A stretch of 34,894 nucleotides of DNA, from IMG/VR virus record IMGVR_UViG_3300013126_004881, positions 1 to 34,894 of that record; one strand, 5' to 3'. Under the pieces are notes generated by a model. The model saw only the letters and a program-made list of their open reading frames with translations. It was not told the DNA's origin and did no database searches. The translations under genes and the position numbers were made by a program. Every line of letters starts with the position of its first letter. Position 1 is the stretch's first letter. Shown here in pieces: positions 5,005-11,589 of the stretch. This stretch comes from a virus.

Positions 5005-5442
5005 ATGACAGCATTTTTTCGTCCATTCGAGCTTGATCCATTTGACCTGCTCTGGAAAGATCTAAAAGAGACACAAGCACATTTTTCTGCCATCACGCAG
5101 AGAGTAACCCATCCCGTAGATATTTACGAAACAGAAACCGGCATTCGCTTTGAAGTTGCCGCAGTAGGCCTCAATGTGGAGGATATCGATATCTCTATTG
5201 AGAACGATTCACTCCGAATCTGTTATGAAAAACCTGCACAGCAGGAAGAAAGTCAACCAGTTTATAGAGGTATTAAGAGATCAGGCTTTGATCTTACTTG
5301 GAAAATTTCCACTAAGTTTGACCTAAATAAGCTAGAAGCATCTCTCGATAAGGGTCTTCTCACCCTCAGTATACCGGTTGCTGAAGGTAAAGCTACTCGA
5401 AGAATTTCGATTACTACACCTAAAGCTCTCCTTGAGAAATAA
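5005..5442 (+). CDS. hsp20: small heat shock protein (Hsp20/alpha-crystallin)
   Basis: A 145-residue ATP-independent holdase. A short N-terminal arm (FFRPFELDPFDLLW) precedes an alpha-crystallin domain from about residue 34 to 130. That domain contains VDIYETETGIRFEVAAVGL, then LRICYEK, and ends with LEASLDKGLLTLSIPVAEG. A C-terminal RRISI resembles the I-x-I anchor used for oligomerisation. Small Hsps are frequent in large T4-like phages. The gene looks more GC-rich and has different codon choices from its neighbours, and it sits alone inside a perfect 15-bp inverted repeat, so recent acquisition is possible. Expression may come from the variant motif near 4917. Confidence 0.93.
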   Translation: MTAFFRPFELDPFDLLWKDLKETQAHFSAITQRVTHPVDIYETETGIRFEVAAVGLNVEDIDISIENDSLRICYEKPAQQEESQPVYRGIKRSGFDLTWKISTKFDLNKLEASLDKGLLTLSIPVAEGKATRRISITTPKALLEK

Positions 5443-5447
5443 ATAGT

Positions 5448-5462
5448 AGGCCTACTAAGTAC
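5448..5462 (+). repeat. right arm of the 15-bp inverted repeat flanking hsp20
   Basis: AGGCCTACTAAGTAC is the exact reverse complement of 4935-4949. This arm overlaps a 14-bp perfect palindrome, TAGTAGGCCTACTA (5444-5457), located just after the hsp20 stop and before the next ATG. Confidence 0.8.
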
Positions 5463-5467
5463 TAGTT

Positions 5468-5656
5468 ATGTTAACACTTACAAAGCAGTTTATTCCGTTT
5501 AATAACAAACTCTTTCTAGTTAAAAAAATAATTAAGGAAGATCATTCTCCCGTAGTGGAAGTCTGGAAAGAGCATCTACGGGCCGATACAGTATTAAGGA
5601 AAGAAGGATTACTTTATTTTTTAGAGACAGTTGATGATTTGGAGATTATTTCTTAA
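5468..5656 (+). CDS. small unknown protein in the chaperone operon
   Basis: A 62-residue protein of mixed beta character (FIPFNNKLFLVKKIIKED, then VEVWKEHLRAD and LYFLETVDDLEII). No family was recognised. It starts six bases after the right inverted-repeat arm and ends 15 bases before groES, so it is probably co-transcribed with groES and groEL. Confidence 0.6.
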   Translation: MLTLTKQFIPFNNKLFLVKKIIKEDHSPVVEVWKEHLRADTVLRKEGLLYFLETVDDLEIIS

Positions 5657-5671
5657 ATTAAAATAAAAAGC

Positions 5672-6043
5672 ATGTCGAAGTTACAACCGTTAAATGGGTA
5701 TTTAATTTTGAGACCCATAGAAGAGGACGAACAAATGTACGGTAATATCGTTATTCCTGATTTAGGAAAAGAGAGACCTGAGATGGGGGAAGTTATTGCT
5801 GTTTCCGGTACCTATAATTTTAATTCAGATAAACTGGTATCTTCAAATCTTGAATTAGGAGATAAAGTTCTCATCCCTAAACTAGGTTCTTTAAGAATTA
5901 CTGTAGAAGGAGATGAGTATTTTATCTGTAAAGAACAAGACGTCTACGCAAAATTAAGCAGTGGATCAAGTGTTTTATCTGTTCTCAAAGAAACAGTAGT
6001 TGATCCTGATTTCGAAAAATATAACAATAGTAAAGTTTTATAA
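5672..6043 (+). CDS. groES: co-chaperonin GroES
   Basis: A 123-residue Cpn10-like protein, a little longer than the usual 95-100. The N-terminus LQPLNGYLILRPIEED and the mobile-loop region MYGNIVIPDLGKERPEMGEVIAV match GroES, whose Ile-Val-Leu loop tip docks on GroEL apical domains. ELGDKVLIPKLG and YFICKEQDVYAKL follow as in GroES. The final 25 residues or so extend beyond the standard fold. It lies one base upstream of groEL, so the stoichiometric pair is coupled. T4-like phages usually carry a diverged gp31; this one looks more like bacterial GroES. Confidence 0.9.
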   Translation: MSKLQPLNGYLILRPIEEDEQMYGNIVIPDLGKERPEMGEVIAVSGTYNFNSDKLVSSNLELGDKVLIPKLGSLRITVEGDEYFICKEQDVYAKLSSGSSVLSVLKETVVDPDFEKYNNSKVL

Positions 6044-6044
6044 A

Positions 6045-7679
6045 ATGACAACAACAGTATTTGGAACTGAATTAAAGAATAAGTTACTTGCCGGTATTAA
6101 AAAATTAAATGAGTCGGTAAGTTCTACTTTAGGACCAGGAGGTCGTACAGTGTTAATTAAAGAAAAATCAGGCGAGGTGAAAGTAACCAAAGATGGAGTT
6201 ACAGTTGCTCGTTCCTTTCATGAACTCGAAGACCAGGTTGAAGATCTTGGTGCCCAGCTAGTAAAGCAGGTATCGATAAAGTCTGCTAATGAAGCAGGAG
6301 ACGGAACTACTACCTCTACTCTCCTTGCAACCACTATGGTAGAAGAAGGGTTAAAACTTATCAATCAAGGATCTAACCCAGTAGAAGTAAAGAAAGCTAT
6401 CGACGTTTACGTAAAGGAAGTTATCGATAACTTAAAAAAAATATCAAAAGATATTTCATCTCAAGATCAAATCCAGCAGGTAGCAGCTATCTCTGCAAAT
6501 AATGATACTGAGGTAGGTAACCTAATATCCACTGCTATTGAGAAAGTAGGAAGAGAAGGTATTGTTACTATCGAGGAATCTAAGACAGGGGAAACTGCCT
6601 TAGAGATAGTAGAAGGTATACAATTCGATAGAGGTTATAAGTCCCCGTATTTTGTTACTAACAATACGACAATGCAGGCAGTCTTAAACGAACCTTATAT
6701 TCTCATTTACGATGGCCGTATCACTAAAGCTGCCGATATTTTAAATACGTTAACTAAAGCTAACTCCGATCAAAAAGCGTTACTAATAGTAGCTGAGGAT
6801 ATTGAAGACGAAGCGCTTGCTACTTTGATAGTAAATAAGATGCGCGGTATAGTTTCTGTTGCAGCAGTAAAAGCCCCAGACTTCGGGGAACGTCGTACTT
6901 TAATCTTAGAAGATTTAGCTATCTTAACTGGCGGACAAGTAATCTCTAAAAATAAAGGGCATAAACTAGAAAAACTAACTCCGGTACAGCTAACGGAATT
7001 TTTTGGAGTTGCAAGGACTATTACAGTATCTAAAGAAACTACTACTATAGTTGACGGTAAAGGTACAGAAGAGGCTATAACCTTGAGAGCTGAAGAGATA
7101 AAAGATCAAATTGAAAAAGCAACATCATTCTACGAGAAAGAAAAGCTACAAGAGAGACTTGGCAAATTAGTTGGCGGCGTAGCTATCATTTCAGTAGGGG
7201 GTAATTCTGATATTGAGATCAAAGAAAAGAAAGATAGAGTAGAAGATGCTTTGTTTGCTACTAAGGCAGCTCTTGTAGAAGGTGTAGTACCTGGAGGAGG
7301 TCTTGCCCTAATCACGGCATTCGAAAGTATTCAGTTACCTTTAACATCAAGCGATGAGCAGAAAGGTTGGGATATCGTGAGAAGAGCATGTCATGCTCCA
7401 TTCAAAGCAATTTTGACAAACTGCGGTATTGAAGATCACTACCGTATCTTAAGTCAGATTAAGAACTATGAAACCGAAGAATCAGCTCATACCTACGATG
7501 CTAAAAATCAAAAAGTAGTAGAAGCAACTGAAGCAGGACTTCTTGATCCGGCTAAAGTAACCCGTACTGCTCTTGAAAATGCCGCTTCAGTAGCAGGTAC
7601 TATACTAACAACAGAATCAGTGATCTTTGAAAAGAAAGACGATAAGAAAAAAGACGAAGATCTTGGAGGAATGTACTAA
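6045..7679 (+). CDS. groEL: chaperonin GroEL
   Basis: A full-length 544-residue Cpn60 (bacterial form about 545-550). Nucleotide-binding signatures are present: [10 protein letters not shown] near residue 27 (the bacterial form is LGPKGRNV), TKDGVTVAR with Asp50, and [11 protein letters not shown] with Asp86. [22 protein letters not shown] contains the Asp equivalent to the ATPase residue Asp398. The tail ends [13 protein letters not shown], a short version of the GGM repeat. The ATG at 6045 is chosen over an upstream TTG at 6000 because it gives the canonical N-terminus and follows the groES stop by one base. It should form a tetradecameric folding cage with the adjacent GroES or host GroES. 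Complete phage GroEL genes are uncommon but known in jumbo phages. Confidence 0.97.
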
Positions 7680-7683
7680 TAGC

Positions 7684-7713
7684 TATTTATTTGCCTAAAA
7701 TTCCTATTTATTC
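7684..7713 (+). promoter_or_regulatory. two copies of the TATTTATT motif
   Basis: TATTTATTT (7684-7692) and TATTTATTC (7705-7713), both preceded by C, lie 21 bases apart just after the groEL stop and 43 or more bases before the phosphoesterase ATG. This doubled arrangement is the only one of its kind in the window. Confidence 0.4.
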
Positions 7714-7755
7714 ACGTATGTTTGGATTGTGATTCAGATAATTTAAATTTAGGGT

Positions 7756-8520
7756 ATGCGAGTAGTTCTTATAAGTGATACTCATACTAGACATAAGCAT
7801 TTAACCTCGAAGGGAATGGAAAACATTCTTCAAGAAGGCGACTTGTTAATACATGCAGGAGATTTTTCTAGCGTTGGACAAAAAGGTGAAGTCGAGAGTT
7901 TTGTTAAGTGGTTAGACCAGCAATCAAAAAACTATACATACGGCGCTATTTTTATAGCTGGAAATCATGATAGGTCCTTTGATCCAAAATATTTTAGAGA
8001 GTATGAAGATTCCGATTTATGGGGCGATTTCTCGCACCTTCAAAAGCCCACGTGGGTTCGCAATATTTTATCTGATCTTAAACCTGGCAGCTCTAGCGTT
8101 ACTTATTTGGAAAACGAAGACGTAACCGTAAATGGACTTAAGATATGGGGCTCTCCTGTAACTCCTTGGTTTTTTGGAGAGAAGTGGGCTTTTAATAAGC
8201 AAAGAGGAGCTGAAATAAAAGAGGTTTGGGATAAAATTCCAGTTGATACAGATATTGTAGTAACTCACTCTCCTGTTATAGGCCGTTTAGATTATATTCC
8301 TTCTACCGGAGAGTATGTAGGATGCGAAGAATTGAGAAATAAGATCGAAGAAATCCGGCCAATACTACACGTATGTGGTCATATACATGAGGGGTATGGT
8401 GAAAGTATGGTTAACGGTACAGTTTATGTTAACGTTAGCATATGTGATCGATTTTACGACCCTGTAAATAGACCTATTGTAGTCGATATTGACACTAAGG
8501 ATAAAAGTGTAATTTATTAA
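7756..8520 (+). CDS. calcineurin-like metallophosphoesterase
   Basis: A 254-residue metallophosphatase or phosphodiesterase. The dinuclear metal-site motifs occur in order: D8-TH10 in LISDTHTRH, GDF in LLIHAGDFS, GNHD in FIAGNHDRSF, TH in VVTHSP, and GHIH in HVCGHIHEGYG. The spacing and GHIHEGYG resemble the MPPED-like branch. The substrate is unknown; phosphodiester hydrolysis or nucleotide turnover is likely. It has its own double candidate promoter upstream and is followed after two bases by the 8523 gene. Confidence 0.88.
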   Translation: MRVVLISDTHTRHKHLTSKGMENILQEGDLLIHAGDFSSVGQKGEVESFVKWLDQQSKNYTYGAIFIAGNHDRSFDPKYFREYEDSDLWGDFSHLQKPTWVRNILSDLKPGSSSVTYLENEDVTVNGLKIWGSPVTPWFFGEKWAFNKQRGAEIKEVWDKIPVDTDIVVTHSPVIGRLDYIPSTGEYVGCEELRNKIEEIRPILHVCGHIHEGYGESMVNGTVYVNVSICDRFYDPVNRPIVVDIDTKDKSVIY

Positions 8521-8522
8521 TA

Positions 8523-8873
8523 ATGGAAAATAAAACTTTTAATTTTGCAAAGTATCAAGGAGTCTTGTTAAAACTTACTAAAACAGAAGATAGAAGATTT
8601 TTTGATAATCACCCTAATGGCGTTGAGGTCGGACGTGTAGAAAAAGGACTTCTTCATTTAGAGAATTCCAACAAGTACCAATGCGTGTTTATTCTAGACG
8701 GACCTAACCGCTACTTTCATACATCACAGGTTTTGGAAATTTGGGAGCATGAAGGATATGATTTAGTGAAAACTCTTAACTCCACTTATAAAATTGAACC
8801 ACAAATAGTATCAATTCCAGGTGTCCAGCAAAAACATTCGGTAGATATTGTTTCATCAGAGAAAAATTCTTAA
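8523..8873 (+). CDS. unknown protein downstream of the phosphoesterase
   Basis: A 116-residue protein with probable mixed alpha/beta structure (LLHLENSNKYQCVFILDG, FHTSQVLEIWEHEGYDLVK) and a polar C-terminal tail. No recognised family. It starts two bases after the phosphoesterase stop and lies 17 bases before the thioredoxin, so all three are probably one operon. Confidence 0.65.
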   Translation: MENKTFNFAKYQGVLLKLTKTEDRRFFDNHPNGVEVGRVEKGLLHLENSNKYQCVFILDGPNRYFHTSQVLEIWEHEGYDLVKTLNSTYKIEPQIVSIPGVQQKHSVDIVSSEKNS

Positions 8874-8890
8874 TTTTACAAAAAAGAAGT

Positions 8891-9142
8891 ATGGTATATT
8901 ATTTCACTGCAGCCTGGTGTGGACCTTGTAAAATGTTTAAGCCTACAGTACAAGAGGTAAGCTCGGAACTTGAAATCGGCATAGTTTATGTAGACGTAGA
9001 TCAGCAGAGAGACATGGCGATGAAGTACGGTGTAACAAGTGTTCCAACTGTAATGATTGAGAATAACGGAAGTGTGTTATACAGAAATTCCGGGGTAATG
9101 TCAAAACCGCAGTTAAAACAGGTTTTATCACAATTCAGGTAA
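8891..9142 (+). CDS. thioredoxin-like protein
   Basis: An 83-residue minimal thioredoxin fold with the redox motif W9-CGPC (Cys10, Cys13), the buried VDVDQ strand, and the cis-Pro motif SVPTV. It is shorter than the usual 105 residues because the N-terminal strand and helix are missing, as in glutaredoxin/NrdH-sized phage thioredoxins. Likely roles are reducing disulfides in phage enzymes, donating electrons, or acting as a polymerase processivity partner as in T7; the choice is not resolvable here. Confidence 0.93.
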   Translation: MVYYFTAAWCGPCKMFKPTVQEVSSELEIGIVYVDVDQQRDMAMKYGVTSVPTVMIENNGSVLYRNSGVMSKPQLKQVLSQFR

Positions 9143-9168
9143 ATTTATTTTAAACAAAAAAAAGAAAG

Positions 9169-9339
9169 ATAAAAAAAGCAATTGCATTTTTAACGCTCGT
9201 TACTTTTGTAGCATGCGCAAATCCAGCCTCAACTGGAACTCCAGTCGTAGATTCTACTGCAGCACCAGTTGATACTTTACAAGCAGCGCCTACTGTAGCT
9301 CCAGCAGCTGACAGTACTCCTGCTCTCGAGGTAAAGTAA
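9169..9339 (+). CDS. small lipoprotein-like gene with only an ATA start
   Basis: Frame 9169-9339 encodes IKKAIAFLTLVTFVAC, then ANPASTGTPVVDSTAAPVD and a Ser/Thr/Ala/Pro-rich tail ending in TPALEVK. A basic N-terminus, a hydrophobic core and a Cys in a TFVAC lipobox are typical of a lipoprotein signal peptide. Small proteins with VDST-rich tails are common in Bacteroidota and their phages. No ATG, GTG or TTG lies in frame between a stop at 9151 and the signal peptide; the first codon that gives a normal signal is ATA at 9169, preceded by an AAAGAAAG stretch. It is either a rare non-AUG start, a start-codon mutation in a decaying gene, or a sequencing error. Confidence 0.55.
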   Translation: MKKAIAFLTLVTFVACANPASTGTPVVDSTAAPVDTLQAAPTVAPAADSTPALEVK

Positions 9340-9419: not shown

Positions 9420-9810
9420 GGGGGAGCCAGGTATTGCTCCGTAATGTGAAGGTACCACTACATGCAGACGGTTGGATTTGTCGTCTTTAAACAAATTTTC
9501 AAACAATAAACGCAACACGTGAAAAACGTATTGCTGAAGGTGGAGCAATTTTAGCTTCTCTCTTCTCTGAGAAGTACGCCGTAGCAGCGTAATCTCGCAG
9601 GGGCAGCTGATAGCCTTGCAACAGAACAGCACTTTAGTTTTCCTAGTTTCATAAAATTAGGTGGTGGAGCCGATGTCAACCAAAACTGACGTCCCCAATT
9701 ACTGATCAGATTTTTGGAGTGTGGTGTCCGCGCTCGGTCAGATCTAAGCATGTGATACGCTGGTGTTATTGTTCCTTATGGATACACGGGTTCGATTCCC
9801 GTCTCCTCCA
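9420..9810 (+). ncRNA. ssrA: transfer-messenger RNA (tmRNA, one-piece)
   Basis: A 391-nt tmRNA. The tRNA-like ends pair: GGGGGAG (9420-9426) with CTCCTCC (9803-9809, one G-U), then discriminator A9810. CCA is not encoded. The T arm is ACGGG-TTCGATT-CCCGT (9786-9802). A pseudoknot precedes the tag: AGACG (9466-9470) pairs CGTCT (9482-9486), and loop TTGGA (9472-9476) pairs TTCAA (9498-9502). The tag frame most likely resumes at GCA (9512) and ends at TAA (9590-9592), giving 26 residues starting ATREKRIAEG and ending SEKYAVAA. Downstream stems include GATGTCA/TGACGTC and CTGATC/GGTCAG. tmRNA with SmpB rescues stalled ribosomes and tags products for proteolysis; the YAVAA end resembles the usual YALAA. 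No smpB is seen in the window, so the host's SmpB is presumably used. A TATAAT lies at 9412-9417, too close to be a certain promoter. Confidence 0.92.
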
Positions 9811-9831
9811 CTGAGCTTTTTAACATCTAAC

Positions 9832-11509: not shown

Positions 11510-11582
11510 TGACCATTAGCTCAGTAGGTTAGAGCAAGCCCTAAAACAGGCCGTGCCACTGGTTCGATTCCAGTATGGTCAC
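11510..11582 (+). tRNA. tRNA-like gene with an aberrant anticodon arm
   Basis: The acceptor TGACCAT/ATGGTCA (11510-11516, 11575-11581), D arm GCTC/GAGC and T arm ACTGG-TTCGATT-CCAGT are perfect. The D region shares TAGCTCAGTAGGTTAGAGC with the Met-type tRNA at 12317, so the two are related. The anticodon arm is not normal. With a 7-nt loop it reads AGCCC-TAAAACA-GGCCG, with two mismatches and A at position 33; otherwise a GCC/GGC stem closes an 8-nt loop CTAAAACA. Identity is undetermined. It may be a decaying or specialised tRNA. No CCA is encoded. Confidence 0.7.
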
Positions 11583-11589
11583 CTACTAA

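What the first reader, a model, noticed from the sequence alone, without database searches (positions are those of the whole stretch)
9420..9810. Complete one-piece tmRNA in a phage genome with an unusually long tag
Acceptor pairing, T arm, a pre-tag pseudoknot with an exact partner loop, a GCA resume codon, a tag frame ending YAVAA, and downstream stems are all present. The inferred tag is 26 residues, whereas common bacterial tags are about 8-15 and the Bacteroidota tag is typically short and ends YALAA. Few phages carry tmRNA. It could replace host tmRNA during infection or mark host proteins for degradation.
Basis: partly seen in the sequence, partly recalled or inferred. Interest (0 to 1): 0.85.

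Follow-up and report, generated by a model that had tools for sequence, protein, structure and literature searches.

The report
Phage tmRNA with conserved long tag
This virus of bacteria carries a complete ribosome-rescue RNA whose degradation tag is almost three times longer than the tags of its likely hosts, and the extra stretch is preserved at the protein level across a large family of uncultured phages, which suggests that these viruses steer the host's protein-disposal system in their own way.

Summary
Confirmed. A one-piece tmRNA lies at 9420-9813 (ARAGORN; Rfam RF00023, 58.7 bits, E 1e-20), with G3.U70 for alanine charging, an upstream pseudoknot, resume codon GCA at 9512 and a 26-residue tag, ATREKRIAEGGAILASLFSEKYAVAA. 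The long tag is real and not a one-off: all 48 intact related phage loci found without using the tag encode 23-26 residues, whereas Bacteroidota host tags are 9-10 residues (85 of 87). Two tag classes occur: type 1, ...STMTFEDLMAFVGADYAVAA (over 100 viral contigs), and the window's rarer type 2, core RIAEGEAILASIF. The type-1 core is under purifying selection (dN/dS 0.14). The resume codon sits where host resume codons sit; ARAGORN's 8-residue readings of many relatives are miscalls. The window's RNA scaffold nests among type-1 scaffolds at the same genomic locus, so the tag segment was exchanged. Neither core was found in the cellular genomes searched. Most contigs lack smpB, so host SmpB is presumably used. 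Phage tmRNAs and long tags (Mycoplasma, phage Bxz1) are known; a conserved, exchangeable long-tag module in Bacteroidota-type phages appears undescribed in the papers I could search. What the extension binds is inference.

The parts
9420..9813 (+). one-piece tmRNA gene (ssrA)
   Evidence: ARAGORN 9420-9811; Rfam RF00023 58.7 bits, E 1.1e-20
9420..9446 (+). 5' part of the tRNA-like domain; acceptor strand 9420-9426 with G3 at 9422
   Evidence: ARAGORN bracket model; G3.U70 in 84 of 84 unique phage tmRNAs
9774..9811 (+). 3' part of the tRNA-like domain; T arm 9786-9802, acceptor strand 9803-9809 with U70 at 9807, A73 at 9810; CCA not encoded in full
9466..9498 (+). pseudoknot PK1: 9466-9470/9482-9486 and 9474-9481/9491-9498
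   Evidence: an H-type pseudoknot fits in 72% of phage sequences, 11% of shuffles; the relative L091 has a paired double change in stem 1 (AGACG/CGTCT to AGGCG/CGCCT)
9505..9511 (+). resume consensus AATAAAC just before the resume codon
   Evidence: AATAAAC, AATAAAT or AATAACT in 70 of 87 phage tmRNAs
9512..9592 (+). tag reading frame, 26 codons plus TAA: ATREKRIAEGGAILASLFSEKYAVAA
   Evidence: type-2 relatives
9530..9568 (+). type-2 tag core RIAEGGAILASLF
   Evidence: shared with L224/L256/L257, L253, L254/L258, L255
9845..9877 (+). intrinsic-terminator-like hairpin and T run downstream of the tmRNA
   Evidence: 3 such sites found in the region, 0.7 expected; consensus match only

Best explanation
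It is a functional phage-encoded tmRNA that works by trans-translation in a Bacteroidota-type host: charged with alanine by host AlaRS, bound by host SmpB, it enters ribosomes stalled on broken mRNAs and appends a 27-residue tail (the charged alanine plus 26 encoded residues). Steps supported by sequence: charging determinant, tRNA-like domain, pseudoknot, resume site, reading frame and stop, a ClpX-type hydrophobic end (AVAA), and protein-level conservation of the tag upstream of that end. Inferred: the end sends tagged fragments to a host protease, and the 13-16 residue upstream segment, predicted to be a helix, is a docking module for a host or phage factor (adaptor, protease N-domain or chaperone) that makes disposal of tagged fragments faster or different from the host's own during infection. 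The segment behaves as a cassette: closely related RNA scaffolds carry either of two unrelated segments.
For: Rfam and ARAGORN. G3.U70 and A73 in 84/84 unique phage tmRNAs, acceptor pairs 4-7 varying with pairing kept. All 48 intact phage loci found by RNA scaffold or by Rfam in polA relatives, not by tag, have 23-26 residue tags. Type-1 core: 26 distinct sequences, differences at codon positions 1/2/3 = 0.16/0.07/0.41, dN/dS 0.14, permutation p 1e-4. Type-2 core kept while third positions change. Hosts: 85 of 87 Bacteroidota tags 9-10 residues. Type-1 core 0 exact matches in 84,980 cellular species genomes; type-2 core 0 of 395 Bacteroidota genomes. Resume codon position as in hosts. Scaffold tree nests the window among type-1 phages (support 0.98; UFBoot 98) at a collinear locus. 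SmpB in only 1 of 48 contigs. Helix predicted for the window tag (single sequence, low weight).
Against: No expression, charging or tagging data. The docking role rests on conservation alone; no partner was found: no Lon in 48 contigs, and ClpP-family genes in only 9, where they may be capsid maturation proteases. Contigs are fragments, so absences are weak. Type 2 has few independent sequences.
Confidence: 0.7

Rival explanations
1. The true tag is short: translation resumes at an internal codon about 8 residues before the stop and the long frame is an accident.
For: ARAGORN reports 8-residue tags for many relatives (AEEYAYAA, ANEYAVAA, ADYALAA); hosts have 9-10 residues.
Against: The internal site would lie at RNA position 135-152 in relatives, outside the host range 90-103, and lacks the resume consensus (GTAGGT instead of AATAAAC); the long-frame site lies at 87-101. 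Upstream codons are under purifying selection. For the window itself ARAGORN gives the long tag.
Confidence: 0.05
2. The long tag is a neutral spacer: extra unstructured length helps protease engagement and its sequence does not matter.
For: C-terminal end resembles host and ClpXP degrons; tag length is similar in both classes while sequence differs between them.
Against: Within each class the residues are strongly conserved despite synonymous change; invariant S, T, F, G, A positions in type 1.
Confidence: 0.17
3. The RNA mainly acts as a decoy or regulator, titrating host SmpB as proposed for the tRNA-like-domain-only RNA of phage DS6A.
For: DS6A precedent (PMC4131195; PMC11915505); most of these phages bring no SmpB.
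Against: A decoy needs no mRNA-like domain, yet the tag frame, stop, pseudoknot and resume site are kept and selected.
Confidence: 0.06
4. The tmRNA is a recent passenger copied from a host ssrA, with no selected role.
For: Phages integrate at and pick up ssrA fragments (PMC9004378).
Against: Phage scaffolds form their own clade apart from 47 sampled Bacteroidota scaffolds (FastTree 0.91 / 0.98); tags never host-like in this family; host-type GENNYALAA pattern hit only 7 viral contigs against at least 120 for type 1.
Confidence: 0.04

Closest known systems
Bacterial tmRNA (ssrA), Rfam RF00023, Bacteroidota branch
   Same: one-piece form, G3.U70, T arm, pseudoknot, resume site position, A-rich hydrophobic end YA(L/V)AA
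   Different: tag 26 residues instead of 9-10; conserved upstream module; scaffold in a separate phage clade
Mycobacteriophage Bxz1/Catera tmRNA
   Same: phage-encoded, long tag (25 residues, ATDTDATVTDAEIEAFFAEEAAALV in ARAGORN's table)
   Different: unrelated tag sequence, actinobacterial host, ends ALV; relation of the tags not tested beyond reading them
Mycoplasma and Mesoplasma tmRNA tags
   Same: 26-31 residue tags; known precedent for a tag whose sequence suits another protease (Lon in Mesoplasma florum, own knowledge, Gur and Sauer)
   Different: end in (Y/L)AFA-type sequence rather than YA(L/V)AA; cellular, not phage; not related in sequence
Methylophilales phage Melnitz and other marine phage tmRNAs
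   Same: complete tmRNA in a lytic phage (PMC9004378)
   Different: two-piece, alphaproteobacterial type; tag length not discussed in the passages read
Phage DS6A tRNA-like-domain RNA
   Same: phage RNA using the tmRNA tRNA-like domain
   Different: has no tag frame; proposed inhibitor (PMC4131195, PMC11915505)

Membership tests
tmRNA (RF00023) | covariance model match above gathering score | tested here: met
   58.7 bits against 47
tmRNA (RF00023) | tRNA-like domain with G3.U70 and T arm | tested here: met
tmRNA (RF00023) | pseudoknot upstream of the resume codon | tested here: met
   5 + 8 bp in the window; class-wide 72% against 11% in shuffles
tmRNA (RF00023) | resume site and in-frame tag with stop, hydrophobic end | tested here: met
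tmRNA (RF00023) | downstream pseudoknots PK2-PK4 | tested here: inconclusive
   CM aligns the region but with low posterior and many broken pairs
tmRNA (RF00023) | acts with SmpB, charged with alanine, tags proteins | not testable with these tools
   smpB absent from the 34.9 kb fragment and from 47 of 48 contigs; host SmpB presumed
Bacteroidota host tag type (9-10 residues, e.g. GENNYALAA, ADDYSYAMAA) | tag length 9-10 | tested here: not met
   26 residues against 85 of 87 hosts at 9-10
Type-2 phage tag class defined here | core RIAEG[EG]AILAS[ILV]F, total about 26 residues | tested here: met

The most novel reading that the evidence does not exclude
A large family of uncultured Bacteroidota-type phages carries tmRNAs whose tag holds a conserved, exchangeable protein-binding module in front of the degron, so that the phage re-routes products of stalled ribosomes to a chosen adaptor or protease; type 1 and type 2 modules would dock on different partners.
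Probability: 0.45. Interest if true: 0.78.

Novelty: new variant of a known kind. Interest (0 to 1): 0.62.

Why it matters
tmRNA tags are usually treated as short degrons that differ little within a phylum. Here the phage tags are consistently 2-3 times longer than the host tags, conserved as protein, absent from the cellular genomes searched, and swapped between otherwise similar RNAs. That makes a direct question testable: does a phage change where the host's ribosome-rescue system sends its products, and through which partner? It would also supply new, possibly orthogonal, degradation tags for Bacteroidota. On the practical side it shows that ARAGORN, the common annotation program, often truncates these tags to 8 residues, so the family is hidden in existing annotations.

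Tried and rejected
Short-tag reading of relatives by ARAGORN: rejected on resume position, consensus and codon constraint. dN/dS from tag-pattern hits: rejected as circular because the search pattern fixed the residues; redone on loci found without the tag. tblastn of the tag peptides against cultured phages: no match, but the positive control with the Bxz1 tag also failed, so uninformative; blastn of two phage tmRNAs and of the window's found at most the T arm, so no close relative among cultured phages. A first multiple alignment mixed strands because loci from the genome search are not oriented; later work was oriented by script. Motif elsewhere in phage proteins, as a possible shared docking motif: none found outside tmRNAs; one 100-codon open frame in L139 ends in the tag itself. 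Lon in phage contigs: 0 of 48. Antisense ORFs over the tmRNA: long open stretches occur in relatives too, in differing frames; not pursued. Bxz1 record not held under two accession numbers. First iqtree runs failed for technical reasons, repeated.

Full report
The RNA. The window is a 34,894-base IMG/VR virus fragment with phage-type genes around the locus: family A DNA polymerase, Hsp20, GroES, GroEL, a metallophosphoesterase and a thioredoxin upstream, and a small membrane protein, PAS-domain protein, tRNAs and an endonuclease downstream. At 9420-9813 both ARAGORN and Rfam find a one-piece tmRNA. The alanine identity pair G3.U70, A73, the T arm, an upstream pseudoknot and a resume site are all present. 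The encoded tag is ATREKRIAEGGAILASLFSEKYAVAA.

Relatives. A scan with the window's DNA polymerase gave 80 related viral loci. The closest named isolates are Flavobacterium phages of the vB_FspM_immuto group, at about 55% polymerase identity, which points to a Bacteroidota host; the immuto record itself gave no convincing tmRNA (L072/G043). Of 47 related records searched with RF00023, 11 had a tmRNA over the cut-off, and a twelfth (L093) was below it. All twelve have long tags when read from the resume consensus, for example DEMSTMTYDDLVAFVGAEEYAYAA in L091, which has 91% polymerase identity to the window.

An unbiased set. A pattern from the 3' scaffold, which does not touch the tag, found 37 further stretches. 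All but two truncated ones carry tags of 23-26 residues. Together with the polymerase relatives this makes 48 intact loci, 48 with long tags; some are the same contig fetched twice, and there are 26 distinct type-1 core sequences. The same core gave no exact match in 84,980 bacterial and archaeal genomes.

Hosts. In 90 Bacteroidota genomes sampled evenly across the phylum, 89 had a tmRNA; of 87 tags read by ARAGORN, 85 are 9-10 residues and the other two look like miscalls. ARAGORN's built-in table agrees for Flavobacterium, Bacteroides and others.

Two classes. The window does not carry the type-1 sequence. Its core RIAEGGAILASLF recurs, as RIAEGEAILAS[IV]F, in seven other viral contigs with four different whole tags. 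Three of these contigs score above the Rfam gathering score for a tmRNA and ARAGORN calls the L255 one. The type-2 core pattern was absent from 395 Bacteroidota genomes.

Selection. On the unbiased type-1 set, mean pairwise differences at codon positions 1, 2 and 3 are 0.16, 0.07 and 0.41; dN/dS is 0.14; a permutation of columns gives p about 1e-4. These sequences share ancestry, so the p-value is only indicative. Among the five type-2 cores, most differences fall at third positions, but four of the five were found with a pattern that fixes the residues.

Where translation resumes. The long-frame resume codon lies at RNA position 87-101 in 87 phage tmRNAs and at 90-103 in 84 host tmRNAs. The alternative short frame that ARAGORN prefers in several relatives would start at 135-152 and is preceded by GTAGGT or similar rather than AATAAA(C/T). 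My search for the long frame itself required part of that consensus, so the consensus match is partly by construction; the position is not.

Tag exchange. Window and L091 are 89% identical before the tag and 88% over aligned positions after it, but the tags are unrelated as peptides (63% with gaps at the DNA level). The two records are collinear around the tmRNA, at 84-89% DNA identity over the long blocks. In a scaffold-only tree, phages form one clade apart from hosts (supports 0.91 and 0.98), the window nests with type-1 scaffolds (0.98; UFBoot 98 in a smaller set), and tag class needs four changes on the tree for five type-2 members. The exact direction of exchange is not settled, since several deep nodes are weak and type 2 could be the older class.

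Mechanism. The anatomy supports ordinary trans-translation with host SmpB; only one of 48 contigs carries smpB, and none carries Lon. Retention of YA(L/V)AA-like ends in most tags suggests use of a host ClpX-type protease (established knowledge of the ssrA degron; not tested here). A single-sequence AlphaFold2 model of the tag plus five upstream residues is one helix through Tyr22 of the tag with a free AVAA end; without an alignment this deserves little weight. The docking-module role of the extension is inference from conservation and exchange.

Literature. Phage tmRNAs have been reported (10 phages listed in PMC4131195; 2.3% of phage genomes in PMC9004378; huge phages with tmRNA and SmpB in PMC7162821). 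The 2025 database paper gives 10 residues as the most frequent tag length and discusses very short tags (PMC11915505). I found no paper describing conserved long tags in Bacteroidota phages; the library lacks most subscription papers, and supplements could not be read, so priority is not established.

Noticed in passing
window 11510-11583; L002 19988-20061: tRNA-like gene with an enlarged anticodon loop; ARAGORN reports a four-base anticodon (aaaa), and (aaat) in the relative; Rfam tRNA 43.7 bits. Possibly a frameshift-suppressor type or a decayed tRNA.
   Followed up: no
window about 9166-9339: Small lipoprotein-like frame (IKKAIAFLTLVTFVACANPAST...) directly upstream of the tmRNA, without an ATG here; a similar 59-residue lipoprotein with ATG sits upstream of the tmRNA in many relatives (59 of 168 loci).
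   Followed up: partly
G462 (294 kb contig, locus L169; SmpB at L471): The only contig of 48 that carries both a long-tag tmRNA and its own SmpB gene.
   Followed up: no
window 5005-9142: Proteostasis cluster just upstream: Hsp20, GroES, GroEL and a thioredoxin, collinear in L002/L006.
   Followed up: partly
L082-L252 tmRNAs: ARAGORN often truncates these tags to 8 residues (for example AEEYAYAA) and misses some of the tmRNAs, so automatic annotations hide the long-tag family.
   Followed up: yes
L254 4017-12854: Type-2 phage contig with about 25 tRNA genes within 9 kb around the tmRNA.
   Followed up: no
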